From a virus, in the IMG/VR virus record IMGVR_UViG_3300033182_001489, positions 1 through 61,851 of that record: 61,851 nt of DNA; one strand, written 5' to 3'. The position numbers and the translations under genes are program-made. A model generated the notes under the pieces. That model saw only the letters and a program-made list of their open reading frames with translations. It was not told the origin of the DNA and searched no databases. Below, piece by piece: positions 21,201-36,706 of this stretch (the first letter of the stretch is position 1; each line of letters begins with the position of its first letter).

Positions 21201-24200
21201 GAACCCAATCCCAATAGATGTCCTTCTCCGCCAGAATGAGTATCCCTGAAATATTCTCCAGCTATAATGCCTACAGCAGGTGCAGCAGCAATTGCGCCAG
21301 CGGTAGCCCCAGACGCCAAAGAAGCGCCTATTGTAGCTCCTCCAGTTTTTGCAATAGCGGCGGCTAATAAACCTTCTGCCGCCACACCCGTTCCCAAACC
21401 TGTCCATTCTGCACCAGTTGCGCCAAGAAAACCTTTTTCTTGTGAAAAACCTTTGCCATACATTCTCAATAATTCTCTTCCTACTGGATCTTGCGCTGCA
21501 TTAAAAACATTATATTCATTCGAATCAATACCGTTTGAGTTCATCCACTGCAGAGCTTCTTCTTGCGTATCAAATATTTTTGGCTCCCTAATGGATAAGA
21601 CATCTTGATTCTTCATTTCACCAGTTTGCGAATCAAACTCATCTTTTTTAAACGTTGTTGATTGTCCTCCAAGAGCATTTGGGTTATTGAATTTTAAAGT
21701 ATCTGCTGAGACCTCTAATGGATTAAAAGCTGCTCCAGATTCTGATAAAAACATTCTAGGATTATCTTTTTTTTGTATCGCAAATTTGCTTCTACCTGCA
21801 AGGCTTGCGGCATAATCTGCAACTTTCATACCTTTTTCGGTTTGAGCAAAATAAGCTGCGCCAACATTTAGACCTACAGTAGTGCCCATACCTATTCCAG
21901 TTCTTGCTGCAGAGCCTAGCTTTTGCGGCCCCATTTTTAAATTCACTGCGTCATCTAAAACTTGCTGAGCTCGCTTCGTTCTACTTAATGTGGCGTTATC
22001 AATTAAAGCCTTAGCCCTGGTTCTCGCTTCTTCAGTTGTAATTTTTGAAGAAACCTTTTCGGTACTTAATATTCTTTGTCGTTTTTGATCAACCATATCA
22101 TCAATTTGATCAACAGAAGCGTTAGGATTTGCAGCGATCTGCGAAGTTCTAAAATCGTCAAGATATTTGTCTACATCTGTAATTTGTTTGCCAGGAGCTT
22201 CTATAAAAGGTTTTTCGGGCTCAGGCAGAGTCTTCCGAGATCTTGTATGTAATATATCATCCTGGTGCTTATCAAGAATCGGAGTAAGATTAGATTTCGG
22301 CTTAATGTCTTCTGGTTCTACATATGTGCCATCAAGCACCGCGGAGACATTAGATTTTGGCTGAGTCTGAACAAGCTTTCCATCTACGTCCTCAGCATAA
22401 TTATCAGGATCATAAAATGTTGGCTTGTTAACATTTAATTTAATCTCTTCGGCAAGACCCGCAATCCTTTCTTCTTCAGTCGCGTCTGAAAATGAAACTG
22501 AGCTATCTCCTTTTTGAATTGACCGATCCCCCCAATTTAAATTATTCATCATTCTCTGATACGGTCTAGTATCTTTTGCATCAATTCTTTTTGCCCACAT
22601 TAGCTTCTCTCCCTTATTAAGTGGAGCTAGGGGGTCATCTACAGCAGCTATAGAAGCTTTATTTTTCCTTGTTATTTGGGTGCCAGGACCTTCAAAAGCA
22701 AAATAATCCTTAAGTCCAACTTTTGGCATGCCTCCTTTTTTTGTGAACTTATATTCATCTCCAAGTTTTTCTTTACCAGCGAGAGATTGTTCTAAATCTT
22801 TCTCAAATGCAGATTTTGGATTCCTTCTATAGCTATCTGCTAGACTTTCATTTCTTGTAGGAACTAAATTAGCAACTGCGCTTTTCGCGTTATTTACATC
22901 CTGCAATTTAGCATTCTCCATCTGTTCTTTATTTCTACGTTTTAATCTACTTACAAGCTTATCGCTTAAATTAACCACGCCATCTTTCATGGAAAGTAGT
23001 CCAAAACCAGACTTCATTGCTTTGGTAGTTCCTTTAAATAATCCAGTATCAACAACCCAATCGCTTAGAGCTCTTAATCTTTCAGTTAAACTTCTTGACT
23101 GCTTTGCTGGAGAGTCTTCTTCTGGACCATCTATTCCAGGAGGATAATCTGGAGTATCTTCGACAGCCTGCTTGAATACTGGGTCAGTTTCTTCCTTGAT
23201 ATCAGTAGCTTGCTTTACAGCACTCTGCCCATCTCCAGTCGCTTCTCCTTCAGCCACTTCAGTCACAGTACCTTGAGCTTCTCTTAGGGCATCACCAACA
23301 GCATTTGCATCCTCAACAGGATCTGGGGCAGGAGGCCTGCTTGTATTTGCTAAATCGCTACCCAACCGCTCAGTACCCTTAAGTCTTCGATCGGTGAAAC
23401 CTTTTTTCACAACTACATTTCCAGCTTTTGCAGTATCTGGGTCTATAATTCCGCCAGGAGTATTATTATGAACATCTAGCATGTTTGCCATTTGAGTTAA
23501 CTCTTCATCGGTCAATGTTCCTGATAAACCTTTTGCAAGTAAATGTTTAAATAAATCGTTATAAGCCCCTCTTTTAATGCCCATTGATTCCATAAGTAAA
23601 TCCATAGCCCTGGTTTGAGCATCAATATTATCCACGTTTTCTAGAGCGCTTGTAGGATCTAGAGCGTCGGCTAAAACATTTCCAGATGTCTTTAAGTCGC
23701 CACTACTACCGCTTTGCTGGACCTGATCCATAATGTTTCTAATTTTTTCAATAGTTTCATCGGGCGCTTGAATATTCGATAAATCCAACGATCCATCTTT
23801 GAACAATACAGCATTAATATCATTTGCATCTGGAAGAACATTACCCTTCTCAAGAGCGAGTTGTTGAGCCTGAGTATATAATTCATCCGCGGCTGTTATT
23901 TGCCCAATTCTCTTGGCAACATCTGCAGCATTATGTCCCGAACCCAAAAGATTTAGAATCTTTTTAGCTGCATCAGGCTTCTCCATTGGTATTAAACTAT
24001 TTTTAATTGCAAATCCTGAAAATATTTTACCTTCCTGTATTTCACTAAGTAATTGCTCTAATCCAAATTTTTTCTTCACAGGGCTCCCATCAGGATAAAT
24101 CGGATTTAAGTATTTTATAAAATCTCCAATTTTAAAAGACTTTCCATTATCAGCAAGACTATCCAAATAAGGGCCAACAATATTCATACCGACATGCTTT

Positions 24201-27200
24201 TCTACATCAACTAATTTGCTAATCAAATCTGGGCTCAATGTTTGCCCAGCAAGCTTTCCACTAAAACTCTTTTGCAACATTTCTCTCTCGAGATTAACCT
24301 GAAGCATTTGCTTCCAAGCTTCAAGCTGGTCTTCATTGTAGTACTTAAATGAATCGATAATACTCTTCAAGCTATTGTCATGCGCAACCAAAGTTTTCCA
24401 TTGGTCTGGATCCTTCATTACTTGATTAACCACATCTAAAGAGGAGAGGCCTTCCATTCCTCCAGCAGTAACAAGCGATTTAGCTAAATCTTTAAAATGC
24501 GTGCCTAGCAATTTTTGATTGGTCATTTTGAATTTGTAAAACTTATCAGTGTCATTTAGATCTTGATAATACTGATAATTTGCCTTTAAGTTATCAAACA
24601 GGACCTTGGCTCGCTCAGACTCATACTTAGAAGAATTTGGATTAGTCATGATATTTTCATACATAGCTAATTGCTCTTTAAGTCTTTGTTGTAGTAGTTT
24701 TGGATCCGATAAGTCTTCTAAACCCAAGTTTTTCTTTAAAAATTCTGGAGAATCTTCTCGCATATGTTGAAGCAAAAGCCTGCTAGCAAGGTCCTCGCCT
24801 TCATCTTGTAATAATCCAGGAGACTTTATAGAATCAATAAGAAGTTCTTTTGGTGGCAAGGGGTACGATTTTTTGGAATCATATTTAGAAATCATTGCTT
24901 GAGTTTCTTTCCACCGAATCTGCTCATCTAAAGTCATTCCCTCGAGCGCGCTACTCTTAAACTCTGGATTCTCAATCAGTTGATCTAACTTTTGTAAACC
25001 TTCTCCGCTTCTGGAAATTCTAGAAGATATATCTGGGGACTTAACGTCTGAATTCTCCAAGGCTAATACTTCGTCAGAAGTTTTAATATCTAATCGCTTT
25101 GCAAGGTCAGGATCTTCTTTCATTACGCCATACAACCTTCTATCAGCTTCGGACTTATCAATTTCTCCATCCTTAAAAGCTCTAAATATTTCTTTTAATT
25201 CCGCCTGAGATTTAATTTGTTTAGTGACAGTTAATTCATTTGCTGCAGAAGCATTTTTCGAATCCTCAAGGCTTAATGGACCAACTTCTCTAGCATAAGT
25301 TTCAATAATATTATCTGCGTCTATTTTATTTCCCCTCGCATCATATAAAACCATTTCATTAGGCTGCTTGATTTCAGTTTTGTTACCAAACTCATCTACC
25401 TCTAAAATAGGTTTCCCAGTGGCAGCATCAATCACTTCATAAGCTCCCAGTTTTTTAGGAGATGGTTTCATGAAAGCTTTTTGCCCTTTTTGCTTAAGGG
25501 AGTCTAGGTAACCTGAGATTTTTTGCCCTAAAGTCTTGGGTACAGTTTCCGCCCTAGCAGAACCAATTCTATCAAGAGCTGAAGCAGGAGTTACTCCAAT
25601 ATTAACTTTGGCAGGCTCCTCAAAATCAACAGGTTCGACTGATTTTGGCTGACTTACCTGTGCTTGTTGTTTTGCAAGTTTTGCCATTTTTTGCAGTGGA
25701 TGTTCATCTGCTTGCAAGCCCTTTCCTTGAGCAACGTCAGCAAGAGCTCGAGCATTATATTGCCTATTCATTTCCATCTGTACCTGAGCTTCAGTATCCG
25801 TAAATCCAGCAAAATTTGCAGCCCTAGCTTTAATTGTATCCATTAAACCCATTTCTCTGTAAACTGGGTCGTTATAAACAATTCGCTCAGTACCATCTAT
25901 AATTGATCGAGTTCTATTAAGACCCCTATCGATTTCTTCTTGCTGTATTTTGCGAACTCTCTCTGCCTCAATTTGTTTCTGAATTTTTTCCTGCTCTGCT
26001 TTGTATTTCTTTTCTGCAGCTTCCTTCTCTTTCCTAAATTGTTTTTCAGCCTTCTCCTTGGCTTTTTGAGATTTTTGTTCTTCCTTTGCTTTTTGAGCTC
26101 GCTCTCTTGCCTCAGCAATTTCCCGATCTCTTTCAGCTTGCAATCTTTCAAGCTCAGCCTGCTCGGTTTCCCGCCTTTTATTTCGAAGATAAGCGGCGGC
26201 CTGCTGTTTCCTTCTTTGTCTTTCTATAAAATCTCTTGCTTTTTCAGTAGTCCTTTCGAATAAACTTTTTGCTGGAACACTATCATCTTTTGCAGAAGAT
26301 AAAAATTCATCATTTGAAAAAGCATCTACAGCTTTCTGCTGCTCAGCAACATCATCACTATCAAACATTCTTGCAACATTTATTCTCTCCCTGATTCCAG
26401 TACCATACTCCCTAGCTCTTTCACCCATATTTCCAATCAACTCCTTAGCTCCAGAAACTGAAGCCCAGCTTGGTACCCAATTTTCCAAACCTCGCAAATT
26501 CAACATATCTGAAATTTTAAATTTAGGCATTTTTATTTTGAAGCCCCTGCCTTTTTTCTTTTGTTTTGCATCAAACGCGGCATCAGACTCGGCTTTAGCT
26601 TTTGCCTGCGCTTCAAGCTGGAGGTCTTTTTCGGTCATAATTTCTTTTGGTCCGAAAGTATCAAGATGCATCAGTCCCTTATTGCCCTGATTATAATCAA
26701 GCGTGCGGATTTTTTCTGTAGCTACTAAACCTTCTTCGGTCATTTCGGCAGGCAAAAGTGCATCGAAACCAAATTGTACTCGACTACCTAATCCCCCCTG
26801 CAATTGAGCCCTTGCAGCAGCGCCAGTATCCAGAAGCCTAGGTGCAACATCTTCCATTATGCGTTCACCACCATCACCAACAACATCACTAAAATGAAGA
26901 CCATAAATTCTGAATCTATCAGTCAGAATTTTATTCATCTCTAAGGCAGCAGTATCGTCTCTTGATAAAAATGCCCTTAACTTATCTCCCTTCTTGGTTC
27001 CTACTTCATTAAGCCTGTCGATAATTTGTTGTTTATATGAATTAATTTTTTCAACCCTTCTATTGGTCTGCCCACCAGAACCCTCTTTTAAAGGATTTTT
27101 TTCAATTTCATCCATTGCAAACGTTAGGTCGTCCACTATTTTTCTAAAACTTGAAACCGCAGAATCTCCTTTAGCAAAATTTGGTACAAAAGCTGCCGCG

Positions 27201-30200
27201 CGACCAACAGAATCCATTCCAAAATTTAAAGAAGATTTTTTTGCTATAGTCTCAATACCCTTTGTGCCAAAAGCTTTATCTTTTGGAGTCACTCCGTGAA
27301 TCGATCTAATTTTTGAAATATAACTTTGAGGCGATACAGCACCTTCATCTAATTTATTTGTTACAACAGCTCCTTGATACTTTACTCCATTAAAACTATC
27401 GTTTTGTTTTGGAATAGTTAATTGAATTTCATTCAAAGGATTAGCAATCCCTTTACCTTCTAAAGCCTTTACCTCTCTAAATATTGCAGAGGTTGCTCCA
27501 GGATAAAATCCAGCAACTCTTAGAGCTGCGCCGCCAGTAAAAGTCTTACCTTCGTATTGAGAAAAACCTCTGCTTTGCAGATAGCCGTCGCCAGCAGTTG
27601 CCTGCAATATGCCTCCAACTGATTGCCTTGCAGATTGAATAGTACTGATTTGTGTAGAAGGATTTAGAAGCTGATTCCTCAAACGGTCTTCGGAAGCAAA
27701 ATTAGGAACAAATCCGCCAGCAGCAGTAGACCCTGCGCGACTACCATTTGTGTTTATTGCAACAGATCCAGCATTAACATTTGTAGAGCCTGAAGCGCTC
27801 ACCGTTAAACCTTTGGTTACAATACTTTGAGCTTTTTCTTTATTGTCTTTTGTTTTGGCTTCGCTTTTCTTCCGCTCTTCTTTTTTGACCTCATCTTTGC
27901 CTTTAAGCGCGCTTAATTGATCTAGTATTGCTGGAAGAGATTCAAATTTAGACAAACTAATTTTCATGTCTGAAATATTTTGATCAATAGAAATCAAGTG
28001 TTTTAATTCTACAGGTTCTTTACTTAATTCATCTGCAATCGCATTTAAAGAATCAAATCCTAAAGTGTCAAGATTTATACCCAAATCTTCTAGATCAATT
28101 CCCAATTCTTTAGCAGTACTCTCAATTGTATCCCTTTGAAGTAGTTCGGGATCCATAGAGGTCTTTAGCATTTCGGCTTCTTGCCTCTGCAAACCTTTAA
28201 TCATATAAGCCATCATATCCTTTTGGCCCTTAGAGTAGTCTTCTTGCACTAGAGCATTCTGCATAACTGCGATTAAGTCCTGCAAGTTGGGACCTCCTTG
28301 ACCATTTTGAACACTAGCGAGAAAGCTCTTATCGACCCCATCCTTGTCCTCCATTTTTACCCCCATGCCCATCAAAATTCTTTGCACATTACCTATTGCC
28401 TGAGCGGTGCCAGCCTCTTGCCGCATTTGCCTGGAAATCTGATCTTCACCAAAAAGAGGTTGCAAAATATTTAACATATCAGTAGTAGTTCTTGCTTGAA
28501 TATCCTTATCTAGGGAAGTTCGTGGCTCAAACTTACTTGCAAACCCAAAGTCTTGAAATATCTTCCCCTCTCTATCCATGTTCAATTGACTATTTCTTAA
28601 TGCAATCCTAGAGGCCATAGTTTCCTGGCGTTGAGCAATTTTATTCTGCATCTTTAATAACTCTATCTGATTACTTGACTTTTGATTTAATTGTACTACG
28701 CTATCCAGCAACTCCTGCTCTTCTTTTGTCCTATTCTCGGGAGCGTTATTAGCAATTGAATCAATAATTTGATCTGCAAAAAATCTAGGGTCAGAATCAT
28801 CAAACTTACTACCAGAGTTATACATATTTGACAAAATCTCTCCCATCGCTCCAGAGAAAACAGAACCATCCTTACCCTCAACCTCATCAATATTCATACT
28901 CTTAGCAAACTCTCTAACAAATTCAGTCACCTCAAATTCGGTTGCCGCAGCAGTTTGGGAGTTGATTCGAGCAATATCAAAATTCATTTTTTCATTATCT
29001 GCCTCTGCAGCGGTAATAACATTCAAGCCTTTAAGTATGCTTAATTCTGATTCAAGTTGTTTTTCTGCTATATTAAATGCTCGATCAATATTTTTATTGA
29101 GCTCTGCAACGCTTCTTGAGGTTGCTCTTGCAAGATTGACAATCGCTGATTTTAAATTGCCTAGAGATTTTGTAGTTTCCCCAACGGCCTCTGCGGCCTC
29201 TAGAGATTGTTTCCTTAACCTTGCCTGCTCCAATATTCCTTGCGTATAATCAACAACTACGTCATCAGGAACATTTTCTATAATACTTTGAAAACCTTTT
29301 CGAGATTCTTCATCTAAAGTTGCTGCATATTTTCTTAATGTATCTTTAATATCTCTAGGGGAATCCTTTAAATAATCAATTTCATTTGTAATTGTATTTA
29401 CTAAGTTATCAACTTGATCTTCTGCCAAATCTAAAGAACGAACAGTATCATTGCCAGCAATTTTAGCTTTTCTCTTGCCCTCTTCACCCATTTCTCCCTT
29501 AAAATCTTCTCCAAAAGGGTTCGGAATTCTAGAAGGTCCAAAAGGAATACTACCAACACTACCTCTATCTTCTTCTAACTTTGTAAGATCAAGCTGCACC
29601 TTATCTAGAGAGTTTAATTTTTGAGCTCTTTCTGAGAATCTCTCAAGCGAGTCAGACATTTTTTCAATATCTCCATTTGCCGCAACTAAATCATCTCTTA
29701 ATTCTTGAGCCGCGGAAGAGCCTTGGGGAAAATCTTCTATTTGCTTTTGCAGCAGTTCTATTGATTTTTGCACAGCGCTAACATTGCCGTTTTCCAGTGC
29801 ATTGTTTAATCTTGTTTGAGCTTGGATAACTCCAGAAGCACTATCAATAACCTTTTGATTATAATTAATGTTTTCTTCTAAAATTTTACCATGAGCTTGC
29901 AAGCTTTTTGAGTAATGATCTAAAGTACCATTTGTTGCACCAACTGCAGCAGCAAGAGCGATCCACCTTTTCTTATTAGTAATCATTGAGGTAATCGCAG
30001 CGATCTGCGTAGCGTCTTGCAGTCCATCTGCAAGGTAACCACTAGCTTCTCCAGTTGACCCCTCGAAGCCGCCTAAAAGCATAGGAGCAAACATAATGCT
30101 ATTTTGAAACATTCCTCCTCCACTGCTTGGAACATCAATGCCCTTACCAGCCTTCGAACCCCCTCTTCCAAAAACTTTACTTATACCCCTACCAATTGCG

Positions 30201-33200
30201 CCGCCGACAAAATTGGGAACATAGCCATTAGCCATTAACCCGTGAAATTCTGGATTTTTGCCCTGAGCAACTGCTCTATTTATTCCTTGATCTATACCAG
30301 CGGGTTCATCATAAGTATTAATTACGCCCAAACCTGCTGGATTATGCTCATTAATTAAGCGATTGCTTTGGGCAACTCTAATTTTTGAAAATGGTATTCC
30401 CGCCTGATGTTCTCTTTGTATAGCCTTACCTAATGCGTCAGTAGTTTTTTTAGATGCTGCTTTTTTATTTATTTCATAATTTGGAACAAAGCCTCCGTAC
30501 ATATTCTCATCGAAATACTGCTTTTCTTGCGCGCCCGAACGAACTCCAGGATAAACAGGAATGCTTTGATGCTCCTGAGTGCTTATATTTTTTTCCTGAT
30601 CTTTGCCTGCTTTTTTTGTAATTTTTCCCCTAATAGAATTAGCGGCAGCAGCTCCAGCAAATCTTTGCAAAGTTGCATCCTTATTCTTTTTTGCTAAATC
30701 TTTATCATATCTATTAAAATCATCTTTATCCTTTGCCACTTGGCCAGACAGCATTCCTTGGTAATCTAATTCTTTTAAAATTTTATCAGCCATGCTAATT
30801 TTAATATCACCAGATTCAGCATTAGCTTTAAAATCCCCCACAAATCCATGGGCAGGAGGCCATGCAAAAAACTTTCTTAATTGCTCAGAAGGTCCTCGTA
30901 CATCAAAATCCCCACCGCCTGCGTTCACAGGAACATTGCCAAAAGCTGTATTTGCTGCAGCCTCAAAAGCATTTCCAGCCATTGCAGTAATAGAGCCCTT
31001 ATTGAAACTTTTTTCAACTTGTCGATTAATTACAGAGGGTGAAGACATGCGAATCTCTGATTCTCCAAAAGCTTTAATAAAATTTTCGGCATGTCCGAAT
31101 ACCACAGTTTTAACATCTCGCTCTACAGAATCAGCAATTTTTGCAATATCATCTACAGTTCCAGGTAAACCAGGATTTATACCTTTTGTATTCCAACCAA
31201 CCTTAAATTGGCTTTGATATTTTTTAGCATACGGTCCAGAACCCCTTACTGTTGCATCGGTTTTGCTGCCACTATTTCTCTGAGGAAATAAAAGTGAATA
31301 AGCAAAAGTCGTAAAAGGAGTCAGGTCAATAATATTATCTTTATCTTTTTGATAAGGTTTATCTTTCTGCCTACCAGCCTTCCCGCCCGCTCCAGCAAAA
31401 TTAGGAATAAATCCATCATTAAAAATTTGCATAACCTCATGTTCGCGAGAGCTGATTTGTTGTGTTTTGTTTTGATTCCATCCAATATCAGACTGAGGAA
31501 CAATTGACTGCATAGATTTGTCGTAAAAATCATACTCTTTTCTGCCATACTTTATTCTATTAAACTGCATAAGGGCAGGATCATTCCTTCTTCCACTGAC
31601 ATTTAAAAACAATCCTCCGACTTGCTCAGCCCATTTTTGTATTTGGCCTGAAGCCATGGCTTTTTTAAATTTTTCTACCTCAGGATATATACCTTTTTTT
31701 GGATTAGCTCCTCGATTTAATAACTTAAGAATCTTCTTTTTATTAAATACGTTTTTCTCTGGAACCTGAGTAGAAAGTATGTTATCTTTTGCAGGTTTAT
31801 TTAATCCTCCTCCAGCAAATTCTTTAGCTATTGTTTGTGAGGTACTGAATGATGTAGCTCCAGAAGGCGCAACGTTGTCTAGCTCTCCAATGTCTCTGCG
31901 TCCAGAAAGCGGTCCACTAACATGAGACTTTACAAAATTTTGAATAATATTAATTACATCTTGAGGAGTTTTAGCTCCTTTAAAGCTTGGCATGTTTCTG
32001 CCAATATTAGGCCTATCTATAGTTGGATTCTTTTGTCCCCTATACAGAGTTAAATTTGCATAATTTGGTACAATACCTTCGCTTATATTTTCAAGCTGTC
32101 GAACCTCAAATGGATTTATATCATATCCATAACCCTTTGACAAATCAGGGAAATCTGCCTTGAGTTTTTCTTGTACGTATTTACTTAAAGATCTAAATTC
32201 CCTTGAATTAAAAAACTGCCTAAAGTCTTCTTTTTGTTGTTTTGTTGTTGCTCTAAACAAACCATCTGCCCTAGATGCAGACTTCAATCGTGTATTTATT
32301 ACCCCACCCCTAGCTCCCATAGACATAAGGTTAAACTCTGAAAGAGCTCTGCTAATTTCGGCAAATTCTTCGTTGGAATAATTTTTTATTTTTGATTTTC
32401 TTAATGTATTAGGAGAATACTTTCTAAAAATTGCGAAATTAGGAAGTGCTCCATATGCCATCTGAGGAGGAGAAGGTTCCGCCATTGGAGTGGTTCCACT
32501 CGCAAATGAATTAATCATACTTGCAAATTCTCTAGCCCTTTCCTTTCCAACTGTCGTATCCCTTGGGGGTAGAACCATGCCCCCATCAGGAGCGGATGGC
32601 AAATTAAAAGCTCTCTGAACATCTTTGCCAGTTTCAAAAAACTTTTCTTTATTGTTTACAACAACTTTTCTTTTTTGCCCTTTAATTTCTAAATTTTTAA
32701 CAGAAGTATCTTCGTAACCCACGGGCTCGTTATATAAACTTGAAGCATTGGAAGCTTCAGCCATTCTTTCATTTAAAAAATTGTAATTAGGAACATATCC
32801 TCCATATAAAATCTTAACGCTTTGAGGGGATTGCTTATGAAGCTTTCGTAATGATTTTAACTCTTCTGCATTATAACCTTTTTTAATTAACAAATCTAAA
32901 TCTGATTTATATTCAATAGGGTTTTTAATATAGCTTTCAAGAAACATTTTATCATAAATTGTTTTTGATTTTATTGTTTTTATTTTTGATTTTTGTTTCT
33001 TAAGTATGTTTTGCGCGGCAGCCCTCTCACCTCGAGTTCCGCCTCTTTTTGCCAACTCTTGTATAGCTCGGACGTTTACAAAATTAGGAATAAATCCTTC
33101 TGAAAAACCCATGGCGCCCTGAGACCTTTTCCACTCATTCACCAAATCATTCATTTTATCTTGCTTGATAAACAACTTACTTTCAGCATCCGTTATATTA

Positions 33201-36200
33201 ATACTCATTCTTTCATCCCCAGGCATAGGTCTTGGACTTGTTATTCCAGTTCCATAAAAACCTCTTATTGTACTCTTGCTCGCGTTACCAGATTTTATTT
33301 TGTCGTAATCATCCCAATAGCTTTTCTTGTAAGAACCAGCGTCTTTATTAACTACATCTCTTAACTTATTTAGTTGGTACGGCGGCAACTTTTTATTTGC
33401 CTCAATCCATTTAATGAAGGCTTGCATTTCTGAAGATTTTCCAGAAAATTTCGTATACCAATCCTTGCCACCTTCAGGTTTATACCTAAAATCTCTCTTT
33501 GCATTAAGACCTCGCTGAAATTTTCCATAGTTAGGGATCATCCCTGCGGCCATTTTGTCAATCATATTAAAAATTTTGCCATCAGATTTTGCAGAAGTTA
33601 CTCGAGTTGTAAGATCGGTAATTAAAAATCTATTTCCCAATTCGTTTGAACCTAAGATTTGTCGAAATTCTTTTCTGTCCATTTGGTTTACGTGATTTCT
33701 TAAATCACTCAAATCCTTAAATTTATATTGCTGCATTGATGACTCATTTATTAACCTACCCGAAGTTATCATATCTTCTTGCATTCTGTATTTTAATTGA
33801 GGGTAAGCATAAACTAAATCTTGAAAATTTGTTTGAGAACCCTGCATAAAAGCTCTTTGTTGCTTTATAGTGTCTGAAGTATACTCGCCGCCTTGTTTCA
33901 TAAACTTCGATTGTCTGGCTGCTGAAAATATTTTAAACGCATCACCTTTTGAAAAAGATTGCATCCATTCGATATTCCTAGTATTCGGACCTGTCTTAGC
34001 GTAAGTCATGGACGAAAAACCTTCAGAATCTTCAAGCCTTCTAGTTTTTAAGCCATTCATTATTCCATTATTAACGTCTCTTATTTTAAAATTCGGAATA
34101 AAACCATCGGCAAAACCTCTTTTTCTTCCTGGAGTTGCTTTTGTTTTTTGATCTGATAGTTTCTTATCTATAAATTTTTGCCCACCTCGATCCTTAATTA
34201 ATTTTGAAGCAAAACTTCCTATATTCTTATTATTTGTAGAATTTTTTGCATCGAATTTTTTACCGACAGAACCTTCCAGCCCAAACACATCCCCAGCTAA
34301 TCTTTGACTAATTGACGGAAAGTCCCATCTATCAGTTCCACCTTTTTGTTTTTGTACGGCGCCTTGTATGTAATTTAAAGTAGCCTCAAATAGTCTTCCT
34401 GAAACTTGGGGAGCGGCAGATTTATCAAGATAATCGCTAAGCGGGCCTGCTGGAGATATTTTCTTTTTTCCTCCAAGAACTCTTTGTCCAATATTTTTAA
34501 GTGCTACTCGAGTTTCCTGATCAACAATTTCATCAAAAGATCCAGATTTACCTTCAATTTTACCAACTGCAACTCCTGACAATGAAATTTTCTTACCCTT
34601 CATGCCCTTGGGAATACCCGAAGGAAAAACATACCTTGCAGGTACATCAAATTTTTCAGAACTTGAAGAGCTTCCTTTTTGAGGCAAAAGAACTCCAGCT
34701 CCGCCAGCCCGAAGGTTAATAGAGCCTTTTGCATAATTTGGAAGATAACCCATTCCAGCAACCCCCTCTATTCCTGTTTGCGCAGCAGAGCCAACTCTTT
34801 CAGCGCCGATTGGAGCGCCAAATCGACTCACCATATCTCTATTCAAAATTGCAGAAGCGCCAGTTCCCATGAAATTTTTAACCATTAATTCGTCAGTATT
34901 CGCAACGACATTTTGCTTTTTAGTTTTTGAAGATTGAAAATTCTCAATTAATACTGGTTCTGCGCTTTTTCGGGCACCACCTACTCCACGCTTAATACTC
35001 TTTTCCTCTTTATTAAAAGCGGGAATGTATCCTTTTGCAAGACCAAGGTCAGCTTTCCCCTTCGCACTTCTTGCACCTCTTCCCGCGGGCACAAAAGCGC
35101 CCATAGGACTAACGGCAATATTCGCTAACGCAGACGACGCAGCGATTTTTTTTAAGAGCGCGTCTTGCGCGATTCGTTCCGTCGTTTGCCTTTTCATGAC
35201 AGCGAGTATTTCTTTTTCTTTTTGCGTTTGCGACATGGAGCCGCTTAAAATTTTCTTACGAACGCCTTCTTCGCTCATTAAAATTTGCAGAATTGCTGCT
35301 TGTAGGCCTTCCTGCCTTTTTGTTTCGCTATTGATTGCAAAAATAGATTTTAATGCTCCTACGCCTTGCTTAGCTATAAATGCAAATAATTTAATAAATG
35401 CTCCACCTATTAATATCATTCCTGGCCCACTAATGAATGAACCAATACCTTTTAGTAATGTCTTTCCGATATTAAATCCTTCGCTCTCTCCAAGTAAATT
35501 ATTAATTCCATCAGTAAAGCCTTTTAAAACCCCTAGTATTTTTTCAATTCCAGGCCCAAGAGTTAGCTCGCCTATTGAAGAAGCCATCTCTTTAATTGAA
35601 AGCCCCGTCTGAACAAGCAGGGCAGACATTGTTTTATTTAATTCTTCATTCCTTCGAATAGCTTCATCAGTTGTATTATTAGCCGTACTTAGAGCCTGGC
35701 CATATATACTATATTCATTATTTAAATCTTTAATTAAAGCTTTTAAATTATTAACTTGAAAAACTCCAGCGATCATTTCATCAGTACTCGCTCTTTGGGC
35801 ATCACTTAATTTATCATATACTGCCGCATAGTCTTGCAAAACTGCCATGGAGGATCGAAATGCTCCTGATACGTCCGTAGTGGCAACACCCACTCCTTCT
35901 AAAGCTTCCCTCACACTAGATCGCTGAAGCCTCGTAAATATACTTTTAAATGAGTTTCCTATAACTGCTCCGCCACGAGCCGTTTGCTGTTGAACGCTAG
36001 TTACTGCCGCAAGCAATTCATTAAAACTGACTTTTGCGCCTTGCGCAGTTGCGCCTGCTCGCGCCAAACCGTCAGCAAGATCCTTTGATGATACAGCGAA
36101 GGCAGCGTCAACATTTGCAAGACGATTAACAATATCGGTGGATGTCAATGCGGCATCACTAAAACCATTGATTGCTGCGGTCAGCGAGGCGACAGAATCT

Positions 36201-36706
36201 ACAGCATCAAGTCCTGATAATCTAGTTAGAATCATTGCATCCTCAATTCTTCTTAATGTTTCTTCTGCAGACAAACCTTGTCTAGCAAATTCTGTAGCGG
36301 CTGCAGAAATATCCTTGAAAGAAGTTGCTGTATTCTGTGCTACGTCAAACAGGCTTGATCCAAAATCTTGCAGTTGAGAAGTCGTCATCCCCATAATTAC
36401 GTTAATATCTTTTAAAGCCTTTTCAACTTCTATAGCCGATTGAGCCATATGCTTTAGTGCGTCTGAAACGCCATTAATAACACCTACAGCTGCGCCAAAT
36501 GCAAATACACGAGCAACAGCAGCGTCCATAGATTTTTCAAACTCACCCATTTGCCCAGTAATTCTACCCAACGGCTGAGCAAGACCTTTTTCATTTAACG
36601 AAATAGATATTGGTTTAATTTTCTTTTCGCCTGCGCGAGCTTGATTAGCGATATCCTGATCAAGACCGACTGCTTTAACTCTGACTTTGATATTATCTTG
36701 AGGCAT
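12206..36706 (-). CDS. Giant tape measure protein, 8,166 residues, with embedded enzyme-like modules
   Basis: Sets tail length and is ejected with the DNA. Residues ~90-330 match the TP901-type tape measure core (SLTAAINGFSDAAL, a QQQTARGGAVIGNSFKSIF stretch). Hydrophobic segments follow at ~400-455. From residue 559 a G[FY][IV]PN[FY]-like motif recurs at 559, 653, 868, 1055, 1204, 1303, 1419, 1544, 1765, 2072, 2161, 2998, 3172 and, diverged, 7439. Between copies: a PD-(D/E)XK-like module (E774, D795, D819-A-K821), a possible GNAT-like stretch (~880-960), an ADP-ribosyltransferase-like module (R1556, STS 1621-1623, E1755-H-E1757), and a second PD-(D/E)XK-like module (E1915, D1935, D1958-F-K1960). 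A charged coiled coil lies at ~3500-3600 and a Gly-zipper membrane segment at ~5100-5200. EF-hand loops are at 6254-6265, 6318-6329 and 7301-7312. The tape measure call is firm; the module functions are motif-level inferences. Confidence 0.93.
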   Translation of the reverse strand: MPQDNIKVRVKAVGLDQDIANQARAGEKKIKPISISLNEKGLAQPLGRITGQMGEFEKSMDAAVARVFAFGAAVGVINGVSDALKHMAQSAIEVEKALKDINVIMGMTTSQLQDFGSSLFDVAQNTATSFKDISAAATEFARQGLSAEETLRRIEDAMILTRLSGLDAVDSVASLTAAINGFSDAALTSTDIVNRLANVDAAFAVSSKDLADGLARAGATAQGAKVSFNELLAAVTSVQQQTARGGAVIGNSFKSIFTRLQRSSVREALEGVGVATTDVSGAFRSSMAVLQDYAAVYDKLSDAQRASTDEMIAGVFQVNNLKALIKDLNNEYSIYGQALSTANNTTDEAIRRNEELNKTMSALLVQTGLSIKEMASSIGELTLGPGIEKILGVLKGFTDGINNLLGESEGFNIGKTLLKGIGSFISGPGMILIGGAFIKLFAFIAKQGVGALKSIFAINSETKRQEGLQAAILQILMSEEGVRKKILSGSMSQTQKEKEILAVMKRQTTERIAQDALLKKIAASSALANIAVSPMGAFVPAGRGARSAKGKADLGLAKGYIPAFNKEEKSIKRGVGGARKSAEPVLIENFQSSKTKKQNVVANTDELMVKNFMGTGASAILNRDMVSRFGAPIGAERVGSAAQTGIEGVAGMGYLPNYAKGSINLRAGGAGVLLPQKGSSSSSEKFDVPARYVFPSGIPKGMKGKKISLSGVAVGKIEGKSGSFDEIVDQETRVALKNIGQRVLGGKKKISPAGPLSDYLDKSAAPQVSGRLFEATLNYIQGAVQKQKGGTDRWDFPSISQRLAGDVFGLEGSVGKKFDAKNSTNNKNIGSFASKLIKDRGGQKFIDKKLSDQKTKATPGRKRGFADGFIPNFKIRDVNNGIMNGLKTRRLEDSEGFSSMTYAKTGPNTRNIEWMQSFSKGDAFKIFSAARQSKFMKQGGEYTSDTIKQQRAFMQGSQTNFQDLVYAYPQLKYRMQEDMITSGRLINESSMQQYKFKDLSDLRNHVNQMDRKEFRQILGSNELGNRFLITDLTTRVTSAKSDGKIFNMIDKMAAGMIPNYGKFQRGLNAKRDFRYKPEGGKDWYTKFSGKSSEMQAFIKWIEANKKLPPYQLNKLRDVVNKDAGSYKKSYWDDYDKIKSGNASKSTIRGFYGTGITSPRPMPGDERMSINITDAESKLFIKQDKMNDLVNEWKRSQGAMGFSEGFIPNFVNVRAIQELAKRGGTRGERAAAQNILKKQKSKIKTIKSKTIYDKMFLESYIKNPIEYKSDLDLLIKKGYNAEELKSLRKLHKQSPQSVKILYGGYVPNYNFLNERMAEASNASSLYNEPVGYEDTSVKNLEIKGQKRKVVVNNKEKFFETGKDVQRAFNLPSAPDGGMVLPPRDTTVGKERAREFASMINSFASGTTPMAEPSPPQMAYGALPNFAIFRKYSPNTLRKSKIKNYSNEEFAEISRALSEFNLMSMGARGGVINTRLKSASRADGLFRATTKQQKEDFRQFFNSREFRSLSKYVQEKLKADFPDLSKGYGYDINPFEVRQLENISEGIVPNYANLTLYRGQKNPTIDRPNIGRNMPSFKGAKTPQDVINIIQNFVKSHVSGPLSGRRDIGELDNVAPSGATSFSTSQTIAKEFAGGGLNKPAKDNILSTQVPEKNVFNKKKILKLLNRGANPKKGIYPEVEKFKKAMASGQIQKWAEQVGGLFLNVSGRRNDPALMQFNRIKYGRKEYDFYDKSMQSIVPQSDIGWNQNKTQQISSREHEVMQIFNDGFIPNFAGAGGKAGRQKDKPYQKDKDNIIDLTPFTTFAYSLLFPQRNSGSKTDATVRGSGPYAKKYQSQFKVGWNTKGINPGLPGTVDDIAKIADSVERDVKTVVFGHAENFIKAFGESEIRMSSPSVINRQVEKSFNKGSITAMAGNAFEAAANTAFGNVPVNAGGGDFDVRGPSEQLRKFFAWPPAHGFVGDFKANAESGDIKISMADKILKELDYQGMLSGQVAKDKDDFNRYDKDLAKKNKDATLQRFAGAAAANSIRGKITKKAGKDQEKNISTQEHQSIPVYPGVRSGAQEKQYFDENMYGGFVPNYEINKKAASKKTTDALGKAIQREHQAGIPFSKIRVAQSNRLINEHNPAGLGVINTYDEPAGIDQGINRAVAQGKNPEFHGLMANGYVPNFVGGAIGRGISKVFGRGGSKAGKGIDVPSSGGGMFQNSIMFAPMLLGGFEGSTGEASGYLADGLQDATQIAAITSMITNKKRWIALAAAVGATNGTLDHYSKSLQAHGKILEENINYNQKVIDSASGVIQAQTRLNNALENGNVSAVQKSIELLQKQIEDFPQGSSAAQELRDDLVAANGDIEKMSDSLERFSERAQKLNSLDKVQLDLTKLEEDRGSVGSIPFGPSRIPNPFGEDFKGEMGEEGKRKAKIAGNDTVRSLDLAEDQVDNLVNTITNEIDYLKDSPRDIKDTLRKYAATLDEESRKGFQSIIENVPDDVVVDYTQGILEQARLRKQSLEAAEAVGETTKSLGNLKSAIVNLARATSRSVAELNKNIDRAFNIAEKQLESELSILKGLNVITAAEADNEKMNFDIARINSQTAAATEFEVTEFVREFAKSMNIDEVEGKDGSVFSGAMGEILSNMYNSGSKFDDSDPRFFADQIIDSIANNAPENRTKEEQELLDSVVQLNQKSSNQIELLKMQNKIAQRQETMASRIALRNSQLNMDREGKIFQDFGFASKFEPRTSLDKDIQARTTTDMLNILQPLFGEDQISRQMRQEAGTAQAIGNVQRILMGMGVKMEDKDGVDKSFLASVQNGQGGPNLQDLIAVMQNALVQEDYSKGQKDMMAYMIKGLQRQEAEMLKTSMDPELLQRDTIESTAKELGIDLEDLGINLDTLGFDSLNAIADELSKEPVELKHLISIDQNISDMKISLSKFESLPAILDQLSALKGKDEVKKEERKKSEAKTKDNKEKAQSIVTKGLTVSASGSTNVNAGSVAINTNGSRAGSTAAGGFVPNFASEDRLRNQLLNPSTQISTIQSARQSVGGILQATAGDGYLQSRGFSQYEGKTFTGGAALRVAGFYPGATSAIFREVKALEGKGIANPLNEIQLTIPKQNDSFNGVKYQGAVVTNKLDEGAVSPQSYISKIRSIHGVTPKDKAFGTKGIETIAKKSSLNFGMDSVGRAAAFVPNFAKGDSAVSSFRKIVDDLTFAMDEIEKNPLKEGSGGQTNRRVEKINSYKQQIIDRLNEVGTKKGDKLRAFLSRDDTAALEMNKILTDRFRIYGLHFSDVVGDGGERIMEDVAPRLLDTGAAARAQLQGGLGSRVQFGFDALLPAEMTEEGLVATEKIRTLDYNQGNKGLMHLDTFGPKEIMTEKDLQLEAQAKAKAESDAAFDAKQKKKGRGFKIKMPKFKISDMLNLRGLENWVPSWASVSGAKELIGNMGERAREYGTGIRERINVARMFDSDDVAEQQKAVDAFSNDEFLSSAKDDSVPAKSLFERTTEKARDFIERQRRKQQAAAYLRNKRRETEQAELERLQAERDREIAEARERAQKAKEEQKSQKAKEKAEKQFRKEKEAAEKKYKAEQEKIQKQIEAERVRKIQQEEIDRGLNRTRSIIDGTERIVYNDPVYREMGLMDTIKARAANFAGFTDTEAQVQMEMNRQYNARALADVAQGKGLQADEHPLQKMAKLAKQQAQVSQPKSVEPVDFEEPAKVNIGVTPASALDRIGSARAETVPKTLGQKISGYLDSLKQKGQKAFMKPSPKKLGAYEVIDAATGKPILEVDEFGNKTEIKQPNEMVLYDARGNKIDADNIIETYAREVGPLSLEDSKNASAANELTVTKQIKSQAELKEIFRAFKDGEIDKSEADRRLYGVMKEDPDLAKRLDIKTSDEVLALENSDVKSPDISSRISRSGEGLQKLDQLIENPEFKSSALEGMTLDEQIRWKETQAMISKYDSKKSYPLPPKELLIDSIKSPGLLQDEGEDLASRLLLQHMREDSPEFLKKNLGLEDLSDPKLLQQRLKEQLAMYENIMTNPNSSKYESERAKVLFDNLKANYQYYQDLNDTDKFYKFKMTNQKLLGTHFKDLAKSLVTAGGMEGLSSLDVVNQVMKDPDQWKTLVAHDNSLKSIIDSFKYYNEDQLEAWKQMLQVNLEREMLQKSFSGKLAGQTLSPDLISKLVDVEKHVGMNIVGPYLDSLADNGKSFKIGDFIKYLNPIYPDGSPVKKKFGLEQLLSEIQEGKIFSGFAIKNSLIPMEKPDAAKKILNLLGSGHNAADVAKRIGQITAADELYTQAQQLALEKGNVLPDANDINAVLFKDGSLDLSNIQAPDETIEKIRNIMDQVQQSGSSGDLKTSGNVLADALDPTSALENVDNIDAQTRAMDLLMESMGIKRGAYNDLFKHLLAKGLSGTLTDEELTQMANMLDVHNNTPGGIIDPDTAKAGNVVVKKGFTDRRLKGTERLGSDLANTSRPPAPDPVEDANAVGDALREAQGTVTEVAEGEATGDGQSAVKQATDIKEETDPVFKQAVEDTPDYPPGIDGPEEDSPAKQSRSLTERLRALSDWVVDTGLFKGTTKAMKSGFGLLSMKDGVVNLSDKLVSRLKRRNKEQMENAKLQDVNNAKSAVANLVPTRNESLADSYRRNPKSAFEKDLEQSLAGKEKLGDEYKFTKKGGMPKVGLKDYFAFEGPGTQITRKNKASIAAVDDPLAPLNKGEKLMWAKRIDAKDTRPYQRMMNNLNWGDRSIQKGDSSVSFSDATEEERIAGLAEEIKLNVNKPTFYDPDNYAEDVDGKLVQTQPKSNVSAVLDGTYVEPEDIKPKSNLTPILDKHQDDILHTRSRKTLPEPEKPFIEAPGKQITDVDKYLDDFRTSQIAANPNASVDQIDDMVDQKRQRILSTEKVSSKITTEEARTRAKALIDNATLSRTKRAQQVLDDAVNLKMGPQKLGSAARTGIGMGTTVGLNVGAAYFAQTEKGMKVADYAASLAGRSKFAIQKKDNPRMFLSESGAAFNPLEVSADTLKFNNPNALGGQSTTFKKDEFDSQTGEMKNQDVLSIREPKIFDTQEEALQWMNSNGIDSNEYNVFNAAQDPVGRELLRMYGKGFSQEKGFLGATGAEWTGLGTGVAAEGLLAAAIAKTGGATIGASLASGATAGAIAAAPAVGIIAGEYFRDTHSGGEGHLLGLGSYAAGGAIAGALIGGPVGALVGAGIGATAYGARTVLGDYVDFDSSGNVSWAKSPEELKEQQKQILELIKTRADELRDIMDLSYMAQKQKESRIGADLISGEPLQKGFSYDTIDEKGNKKRINVAGKDLFDASIEEENKRRMEEQMKHILGLLDIAEDMDAKILENKKLRQLGEVNDNWFSDDDPVFKQNYTFDEANRMISDVVSLYDASGNTHFDMATLRKMSKEGYTQKQIMDTFSDPNFEISRIDPKTGQPKTIKPNTKDIKDLRAKKAKDYLKGLENVNLVNKRRGHTASSTDFVATTGHSVDDVVRLGQLKPDQIEYESKVASLIKDRRGKLFSKEHKILQSKKEWKDAASRGTLDYGKVGYPLEMAKILGIPLKADGKPRRQAAIEADVDKAYEDYFASGKLPVKRPLFDGDFVSDARDTMKMIRYTDGVNSLMWGKQKDGWTVEHDPDTKGVNMFHPEFGAVSLPGLGNYDSEASLEKLIEKYEADIMRSGYEDNKNMDPTLQGFSDTDRYRSGYDQKTSRSELGKSKYKNYDEISKHIPEDRRRMLGALSVLMQRKESIDNQELSRESVEKIRTQDKKSKKFERDAKRYGDFSKFIAERNTKVKSANQEISSAGFDLNKAISDFSLNKIVQGVNKEHLGHDFLNNKKLGSLNMSEAEINAYVDRMYDFVQQQDVGPLMKEFDNTQAEIGVIDKKISQGVTPEERKNLNLKKQSLQQKLEKISVKRADIKKGLSAPARIKKALAVRAKAESEYKAKVDGLYSSMSNDLSSGQKSVFNDVGRRFGSDTIEGKEIAIQRVFENELLEESRKQQMPDLYPGETPDRNKLNLQRGIMFEDDQWSPELKDKHQKWLDLKSKYLTIPNVPKEMLLPEQHSEILKAKEDFMKQYSFELKNRSSVKAGTEEKWEDFSKSRFTKEQKEQGAETSVAEKIAKARDQWKDVAGMPEMLQYTAQMELAGTDVGANLAMGSIPVNEIDKAHGRLTNLLSRSGKTMEWWRDQPLKSRNAKLNQIQRQSSRKEMLDKFARENLSAEGARVEGTSEIFKTYQDYKIGPITVPGRSAEDHAMDFLKKNLRDKFNFYDINEDNRLSAREIGDMGADFSLDNHLGKLLGSDKEGYSIARRKKVGADAGTFVPEMFSQLLQTQDLNDDGFLDRSEIFKGVGSKDFREREDFYAPKIQENVNKMLKENMVHRVSPYTASLESGMLDYFSGGGLGAISSWSNVLNIPASKIKGLEPGKQKEISEAQSVAAALIQSVPYHQTVIKRGSALEERTKAQYKDLFETREMFRLSGEDELTGRELEAKRDMLKQKEGGVDSAEYKSTMKHLNALYAKQEKFKQIDGMIKDSIRTGLFNEGGPFSLTDFLQMHLSSPEAQYSGLSDPSWAPDNIGTRWQTYDKDYFNGIRTAATSLDSLEAAKIDTAMFGGEEAEVGSQDLNFELDEARLQQQHAERNKFIKENMNERSRQAFERELRGDGPHGDFNLLDGESSPEKPTLTNIYDPLKFIQKYTQDYNLKKGQLWRDVDEKKKVYDDLRLNAGIGNNPQTGVEARSVAFNQYKQAVLAELKHRKILNPNATTAEVVNRKNYHELSNSDWSLGSTYKDFFENYNESDIKVQMPAGDIPVKNAQEAGEQLFKNRGDEIIPVLKKRGLMTQDGKFVSKVGENVITPQKIYELIATTTPGSKYVYKNDSKFQRMKQIWASKYGGEFTPGAMNLFKNEGSLLTLTSSTPAGDLNKSTFSGDLSNSFVVQRTASKEGEEPEVLGQFDTLSPIDKLMHAIAESAQVGFKGSASTTDFRSIYKGMSLHEREMFKSKYADDIENKVPPGIIKQLNTFISEIDKEELYGAAQGRVPNYIKLKMKHNKRLTPQEKSVLAQAKRDEYEARKIVQAKRRASGISRGAAALIDRADYNECLARFIDASPGAGAHRSLIGFDKRMKDLDNLNLEYGPRKFEGRMIKNEGDKNKLREGFARARATYFNQFKAAVQRDHNSKNRIIFDHVDPRGFRENPDLCNIKTNMIGRPTIETLSAEEKAAAARLGITLQDNVMKVDEQGNPILSQEQLTNERRLEGTGPFDITRKTQIMEGAGAGGAIMTETTLNEIQTAANQAFSQFNQNREKIEKEQKQQDIDKYDTDGDGKLSDDELRIKKLKEFLEKNKRSASASGFKPTQKSAGMSAKSGAKGIMNEMFAAHRAGYKSPLRPNEVSMAKLRTSTGRVEKRTVNSREKIFSRGGMDFVAPPRDSGATARKYASSVKSEFGFDPYDDSTAAEGFIPRAANAASTALQTNLITGPLIMALQKVFNQQKSSSQQSQSSSAFEDIQYRYDPKKDVMQPSNDRALNKMVRNFVDTKASRTEDSERVNFDDITKPFIDSFQVWKEISKNVKQSFNEGQKQFVDGFKQIFDLQQEANSPEEGFENLLKKVDLKQANPMSPAVDILKQLLDCCRKGSAEEKRLQQADQRSSSPEVKRDIVEQSKSSMTPGQKLVQDVANARFERQKEMGGIDLNSFARTNLARSVTDLDVQKIDDQGDPDIIAAKKRFLEDDNFRQANKQIDWDAWAKDKFEHFQDRGIQVNRGNVDELLGKAPEGTFMDQAIQKQLQNFEFDPAKIPSADPLKQEAEVIKDGITAINQPDATAPREEALALRGNCCDAIEDFLRSQTQTPDLSSQQQFVPPEGHTIPDSIPDMDQLRYKVDEDDLEPQVRRFNNSFESPPVDFLTRKPEQKLYRYESDTFRNQSAAMDSLNPSSTSMGVDTTFLDAIPSALAPLMEGFTSFIGKIGDLSDILQTPIGPMMMEQGLNEQGALFNNTENVFETNNDNSSAEIQTQEVNQPRLQIPEGLEEMLTLKAPEEMPAVEFNVDNFNTAISRLETSMASLSEIRLSPPTSEELRLAMPDDFSLQLQAPEDMPTVNIDVEKLDAAVKALNEAVQNATSVTHKFDLNLDTSGIVQVVADNEQLRKGVETPLADFKKAMESSLETTLGYRISAAMNDVINLLTGGAR

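What the first reader, a model, noticed from the sequence alone, without database searches (positions are those of the whole stretch)
34105..34750. First PD-(D/E)XK nuclease-like module in the tape measure protein
The interval 653-868 has GRLFEATLNYI (E774), WDFPS (D795), and KKFDAKNS (D819-A-K821): Glu on a helix, Asp, then D-x-K, the order of PD-(D/E)XK nucleases. It might cut host DNA at entry, or be a remnant used as a structural domain.
Basis: partly seen in the sequence, partly recalled or inferred. Interest (0 to 1): 0.72.

Follow-up and report, generated by a model that had tools for sequence, protein, structure and literature searches.

The report
Nuclease-like module in tape measure protein
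An uncultured phage carries, inside its giant tail ruler protein, a domain with the conserved active-site residues of a DNA-cutting enzyme; the same domain sits in the tail rulers of dozens of related phages, so it is probably injected into the host with the phage DNA, although its cutting activity is untested and its fold unconfirmed.

Summary
They lie in a module bounded by two copies of a repeated G[FY][IV]PNF motif. The module belongs to an unannotated family. Of 83 TMPs compared, 68 carry it, mostly in uncultured phages. Across 57 aligned modules at about 20% identity, G770, F773, E774, K821 and K835 are invariant. D795 is D in 55 and E in 2; position 819 is D in 49 and E in 8. dN/dS is 0.07-0.17 between close copies. 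This is the PD-(D/E)XK signature under strong constraint, so a decayed remnant is unlikely. A second, diverged copy lies at TMP 1771-2077. The canonical fold is not shown. Two AlphaFold models (pLDDT 84 and 79) agree with each other but put the beta meander before, not after, the Glu helix. Foldseek and VIA-align find no significant solved relative, and Pfam, PHROGs, NCBIfam and PADLOC give no hit. Sister TMPs carry a tRNA nucleotidyltransferase and an acetyltransferase between the same motifs. The best reading is therefore a TMP-borne, injected, metal-dependent nuclease of a new PD-(D/E)XK-like family.

The parts
12206..36706 (-). Tape measure protein ORF, 8166 aa, that holds the module
   Evidence: PhageMin_Tail PF10145 at residues 122-308, E 1.1e-25; PHROG tape measure families E 1e-48 to 1e-9
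35354..36706 (-). Conserved TMP N-terminal region, residues 1-451
   Evidence: 79-81% identical in L003/L004, 46-62% in most other IMG/VR loci
34733..34750 (-). Opening boundary motif GYLPNY (653-658)
   Evidence: one of 412 [VILM]PN[FY] motifs in 83 TMPs, consensus A[SA]xGFIPNFA
34103..34750 (-). Nuclease-like module 1, residues 653-868
34478..34723 (-). N-terminal sheet (4 strands) and helix alpha-0 of the module, residues about 662-743
   Evidence: AlphaFold model, strands 10-14, 19-25, 29-37, 54-65, helix 72-91
34367..34417 (-). Helix with G770-x-x-F773-E774 (764-780)
   Evidence: helix 112-128 in the model; G, F and E invariant 57/57
34322..34324 (-). D795 codon, WDF motif
   Evidence: 55 D + 2 E of 57
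34244..34252 (-). D819-A-K821, the (D/E)xK motif, on a short strand
   Evidence: 49 D + 8 E at 819, K 57/57 at 821; strand 166-168
34190..34231 (-). Following helix with invariant K835
   Evidence: helix 174-187; K 57/57
34088..34105 (-). Closing boundary motif GFIPNF (868-873)
30476..31396 (-). Nuclease-like module 2, residues 1771-2077, with E1915, D1935, D1958-F-K1960 and K1975
   Evidence: 71% identical copies in L003/L004, phmmer E 1e-8 to 1e-9 to modules of other TMPs; aligned in A10; AlphaFold model with the same element order

Best explanation
The module is one member of a so far undescribed family of metal-dependent, PD-(D/E)XK-like nuclease domains built into phage tape measure proteins. 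Shown: the residue constellation E, D, (D/E)xK, K; its near-invariance; strong purifying selection; its place between repeated GFIPNF motifs near the TMP's N-terminal end; and a second copy in the same protein. Inferred: E774, D795 and D819 bind the metal, with K821 (and perhaps K835) as catalytic lysine. Also inferred: the tape measure leaves the tail ahead of the DNA and carries the module into the host, where it cuts host or competing nucleic acid early in infection. DNA of the host or of resident plasmids is my preferred target.
For: Residues confirmed. 41-42% identical relatives keep all four residues; the 21-28% relative L008 keeps E, D819 and K821 and has Glu for D795. 68 of 83 TMPs carry the module at E<1e-9, 64 of these bounded by PNF motifs on both sides. 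Conservation over 57 sequences. The family is also recovered without selecting on the motif: by an HMM of five module-1 sequences and by phmmer of module 2, and L023 by an HMM with the catalytic columns masked (E 1.9e-46). Confident AlphaFold model with Glu on a helix and DxK on a strand; same element order for module 2. dN/dS 0.07-0.17 between close copies. Sister TMPs carry recognisable enzymes as modules: tRNA nucleotidyltransferase in L003 (PF01743 E 7.5e-20) and L012, GNAT in L060. Precedent: Tme, a tapemeasure-related effector with a C-terminal endonuclease (PMC11126660).
Against: No significant fold match to any solved nuclease. The predicted strand order lacks the expected strand between the Glu helix and the Asp strand, and the two catalytic strands are very short. 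No Pfam, PHROG, NCBIfam, PADLOC or PDB sequence family recognises it. Delivery, activity and target are not shown.
Confidence: 0.55

Rival explanations
1. The module is an active enzyme with a metal site made of these residues, but of a fold other than PD-(D/E)XK (another phosphodiesterase or phosphotransferase fold), so the motif order is convergent.
For: The predicted order is beta4-alpha-alpha(E)-beta(D)-alpha-beta(DxK)-alpha(K) in two separate models; Foldseek and VIA-align give no PD-(D/E)XK hit above background, only SgrAI at Z 2.3 among Ras proteins at similar Z.
Against: (D/E)xK with free D/E exchange at the acid and an invariant Lys, plus an upstream Asp and a helix Glu in a GxxFE context, is the usual PD-(D/E)XK pattern (established knowledge). 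That superfamily is known for inserted and missing elements, and fold searches often miss diverged members.
Confidence: 0.25
2. The module is a structural spacer of the tail lumen or a host-factor binding domain, and the residues are kept for folding or metal-structural reasons without catalysis.
For: It lies inside a structural protein; no activity is shown; no library names it an enzyme.
Against: The charged residues are among the very few invariant ones while most positions drift (A4 mean column identity 19%). Sister modules are recognisable enzymes. The module is absent from some TMPs of the family.
Confidence: 0.12
3. It is a nuclease that acts on the phage's own DNA at ejection or packaging (end trimming, release of the DNA from the tape), not on host nucleic acid.
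For: The module usually follows the conserved N-terminal TMP region, two PNF motifs in, which in siphophages lies at the head-proximal end next to the DNA (established knowledge).
Against: Two diverged copies in one TMP and absence from some TMPs fit accessory effectors better than an essential ejection step.
Confidence: 0.08

Closest known systems
PD-(D/E)XK (restriction-endonuclease-like) nucleases
   Same: Glu on a helix, Asp, (D/E)xK in order, and a further conserved Lys in the next helix
   Different: No profile or structure match to a known family; predicted strand order differs, with the meander before the Glu helix and a helix between the Asp and the DxK strands
Tme, the tapemeasure-related effector of the Streptomyces davawensis contractile injection system (PMC11126660)
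   Same: A tape-measure-type protein that carries a nuclease domain
   Different: Tme has one C-terminal EndA-like domain with DRGH and H-N-N motifs in a contractile injection system; here the module is internal, of PD-(D/E)XK type, in phages, and set between GFIPNF motifs
Phage polyvalent proteins (PMC5512222)
   Same: Several unrelated enzyme domains in one virion polypeptide thought to enter with the DNA
   Different: That paper's text does not mention tape measure proteins; polyvalent proteins are often separated by metallopeptidase domains, whereas no such Pfam hit was found here
TMPs with embedded enzymes such as SPbeta YomI (transglycosylase)
   Same: Best cultured match of the TMP N-terminal region, 26% identity
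   Different: The match covers only TMP residues 79-491; no cultured phage record matched the nuclease-like modules

Membership tests
PD-(D/E)XK nuclease superfamily | Asp followed by (D/E)xK | tested here: met
   D795 55/57 (+2 Glu); 819 D 49 / E 8; K821 57/57
PD-(D/E)XK nuclease superfamily | Acidic residue on the preceding helix (present in many families) | tested here: met
   E774 57/57, in helix 112-128 of the model
PD-(D/E)XK nuclease superfamily | Alpha-beta-beta-beta-alpha-beta core topology | tested here: inconclusive
   Two models give beta4-alpha-alpha-beta-alpha-beta-alpha; strand between the Glu helix and the Asp strand not predicted, catalytic strands short
PD-(D/E)XK nuclease superfamily | Structural similarity to solved members | tested here: inconclusive
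   No Foldseek match with E<=0.001; SgrAI 3n78_B at Z 2.3 over 104 residues, rmsd 4.7, tied with Ras proteins; none listed for module 2
PD-(D/E)XK nuclease superfamily | Match to a curated profile of the superfamily | tested here: inconclusive
   No credible hit in Pfam, PHROGs, NCBIfam or PADLOC for any of 57 members; diverged families are often missed
PD-(D/E)XK nuclease superfamily | Metal-dependent nuclease activity | not testable with these tools
   Needs a bench assay
Phage tape measure protein (host protein of the module) | PhageMin_Tail / TMP profile and very long ORF in the tail gene cluster | tested here: met
   PF10145 E 1.1e-25; PHROG TMP families
Polyvalent proteins | Several distinct effector enzyme domains in one virion protein | tested here: inconclusive
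   Distinct enzymes found in sister TMPs; in the window only the two nuclease-like modules and an ART-like stretch seen by eye
Polyvalent proteins | Metallopeptidase domains that separate the effectors | tested here: inconclusive
   No metallopeptidase family in the Pfam scans of the window TMP; a diverged one could be missed

The most novel reading that the evidence does not exclude
A clade of uncultured long-tailed phages uses the tape measure protein as a cargo train. Exchangeable enzymes (one or more PD-(D/E)XK-like nucleases, tRNA nucleotidyltransferase, acetyltransferase, perhaps ADP-ribosyltransferase) are strung between a repeated A[SA]xGFIPNFA motif that docks, spaces or releases them, and all enter the cell with the first DNA.
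Probability: 0.45. Interest if true: 0.85.

Novelty: new variant of a known kind. Interest (0 to 1): 0.64.

Why it matters
Tape measure proteins are known as rulers and DNA-channel formers. A conserved nuclease-like family inside them, in dozens of uncultured phages and next to other enzyme modules, would make the tail tape itself a delivery vehicle for effectors. It would place a host-takeover or anti-defence nuclease in the cell at the same moment as the phage DNA. The family is unannotated in the libraries searched, so many phage genomes probably carry it unnoticed.

Tried and rejected
Module alone against Pfam, PHROGs, NCBIfam, PADLOC and PDB sequences: only chance hits. The PDB 'lectin' hits near E 0.001 rest on short GTVFE.. 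stretches. Module-only scans of IMG/VR and GTDB genome contigs with single patterns found nothing new; the family became visible only through the TMP N-terminal region. tblastn in 50,697 phage records: no module match. Foldseek in BFVD: best hit, F108 Q1I0Z4, E 0.03 with TM 0.15; the F108 gene of nearest length is annotated tail sheath, so it was rejected. Foldseek and VIA-align on a second family member (module 2) also gave no listed nuclease. Profile comparison with known PD-(D/E)XK families was not completed. Decayed remnant rejected: dN/dS well below 1 and near-invariant residues. Literature search found no description of such a TMP module or of the GFIPNFA motif; the library lacks most subscription papers.

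Full report
Observation. The window is an IMG/VR virus record of 61,851 bases. ORF 12206..36706 (-) encodes 8166 aa. It is a tape measure protein: PF10145 E 1.1e-25 and several PHROG TMP families. The finding's residues are at the stated places, E774, D795, D819 and K821. The interval is residues 653-868, window 34103-34750, and it runs from one GYLPNY motif to a GFIPNF motif.

Family. The module alone matches nothing in curated libraries or in 50,697 phage records. The TMP N-terminal region led to relatives. Three contigs (L002-L004) are 79-81% identical over residues 1-451. Their module is only 41-42% identical, yet E774, D795, D819 and K821 are all kept. L008 is at 21-28% identity and keeps E, D819 and K821, with Glu for D795. 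A wider scan gave 80 IMG/VR loci with this type of TMP. In 83 TMPs including the window, 68 carry the module at E<1e-9, and 64 of these 68 are bounded by PNF motifs on both sides; of the 15 without it, at least seven are contigs that end too early.

Is this circular? The large HMM was seeded with a regex on the motif, so its hits carry the motif partly by choice. Three controls do not depend on that. An HMM of the five module-1 sequences finds L023, L027, L035, L045, L040 and others, and phmmer of module 2 finds L071, L066, L033 and others at E 1e-8 to 1e-10; these regions show the same residues in alignment. An HMM with the catalytic columns masked finds L023 at E 1.9e-46, with the motif; its weak hits in L065, L068 and L080 fall on the N-terminal half, upstream of their motif. 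The regex itself occurs 73 times in the TMPs and 1.04 times on average in shuffled copies.

Conservation. In 57 non-redundant modules with a mean column identity of 19%: G770 57/57, F773 57/57, E774 57/57, D795 55 D and 2 E, position 819 49 D and 8 E, K821 57/57, K835 57/57, F808 56/57. The D/E exchange before an invariant x-Lys is the (D/E)xK signature. dN/dS between close copies is 0.07-0.17, against 0.04 for the TMP N-terminal region. The window-to-L004 value of 0.34 is near saturation and is not used.

Structure. AlphaFold2 on the 57-row alignment gives pLDDT 84.4 and pTM 0.79. The elements are strands 10-14, 19-25, 29-37, 54-65; helices 72-91 and 112-128 (E774 is model residue 122); a bridge residue at 144, next to D795 (143); helix 149-155; strand 166-168 with D819 (167), followed by K821 (169); helix 174-187 with K835 (183); helix 191-205. 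Module 2 of the window, modelled from a 66-row alignment, gives pLDDT 78.5 and the same order. The order differs from the textbook alpha-beta-beta-beta-alpha-beta core: no strand is predicted between the Glu helix and the Asp strand, and a small helix separates the Asp and DxK strands. Foldseek found no solved structure with E<=0.001 for either model. VIA-align listed SgrAI at Z 2.3 (104 residues, rmsd 4.7), tied with unrelated Ras proteins, and no listed restriction-type nuclease for module 2. So the fold test is inconclusive. I had no model coordinates and could not measure whether the four residues meet.

Context. The TMPs are modular. A motif with consensus A[SA]xG[FY][IV]PNF[AS] occurs 412 times in the 83 TMPs; the window TMP has 13 [VILM]PN[FY] motifs against 0.23 in shuffles, and eleven other window proteins have one between them. 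Modules between motifs differ between phages. L003 holds a tRNA nucleotidyltransferase (PF01743 E 7.5e-20 plus PF13735 and PF12627), L012 a PolyA_pol domain and L060 a GNAT acetyltransferase. Known enzymes in the same slots make a catalytic role for the nuclease-like module more likely.

Mechanism. Shown: sequence signature, constraint, modular position and sister enzyme modules. Inferred from knowledge of siphophage tails: the tape leaves the tail before the DNA and enters or spans the host membrane. Inferred: the module then folds or is released in the cytoplasm and cuts nucleic acid with E774, D795 and D819 holding the metal. The target could be host DNA, resident plasmids or prophages, or RNA. 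Nothing here decides it.

Relation to known systems. Tme of Streptomyces davawensis shows that a tape-measure-related protein can carry an endonuclease domain, C-terminal and of EndA type (PMC11126660). Polyvalent proteins (PMC5512222) are the nearest concept for many enzymes in one injected phage protein, but the paper's text does not mention tape measures. I found no paper on a PD-(D/E)XK-like module in a phage TMP or on the GFIPNFA motif, in an open-access library only.

Verdict. The nuclease reading is the most likely one (about 0.55 for an active PD-(D/E)XK-like nuclease; higher for an active enzyme of some kind). The canonical fold is not demonstrated, and membership in the superfamily should not be claimed as shown.

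Noticed in passing
L003:14666-16192 (also L004 and L012 TMPs): A tRNA nucleotidyltransferase (CCA-adding/poly-A polymerase type, PF01743 E 7.5e-20, PF13735, PF12627) lies inside the tape measure protein between PNF motifs, which suggests injected tRNA repair. L012 has PF01743 at E 2.3e-13; the L004 copy was seen by eye only.
   Followed up: partly
L060:11276-19306: A GNAT acetyltransferase domain (PF00583 E 1.9e-6) lies inside the tape measure protein.
   Followed up: no
window 12206-36706: Repeated motif A[SA]xG[FY][IV]PNF[AS] at module borders, 13 [VILM]PN[FY] copies in the window TMP and 412 in 83 TMPs; possible docking, spacing or cleavage site; no paper found on it.
   Followed up: partly
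window 31397-32059: TMP residues 1550-1770 (LTLYRGQK...GATSFSTSQTIAKEFAGG) look ADP-ribosyltransferase-like by eye; no Pfam hit; conserved in L003 and L004.
   Followed up: partly
window 17711-17977: EF-hand pair-like stretch in the C-terminal half of the TMP (PF13499 E 3.6e-6, just under the curated cut-off), with a further weak EF-hand motif near TMP residue 7300.
   Followed up: no
L003:14075-14623: Module RKFYDFDETLGTYSK...LTARAK looks HAD-phosphatase-like by eye; no Pfam support.
   Followed up: no
window 12206-36706: 8166 aa is very long for a TMP; at the usual 0.15 nm per residue it would predict a tail of about 1.2 micrometres, unless the globular modules do not count for length.
   Followed up: no
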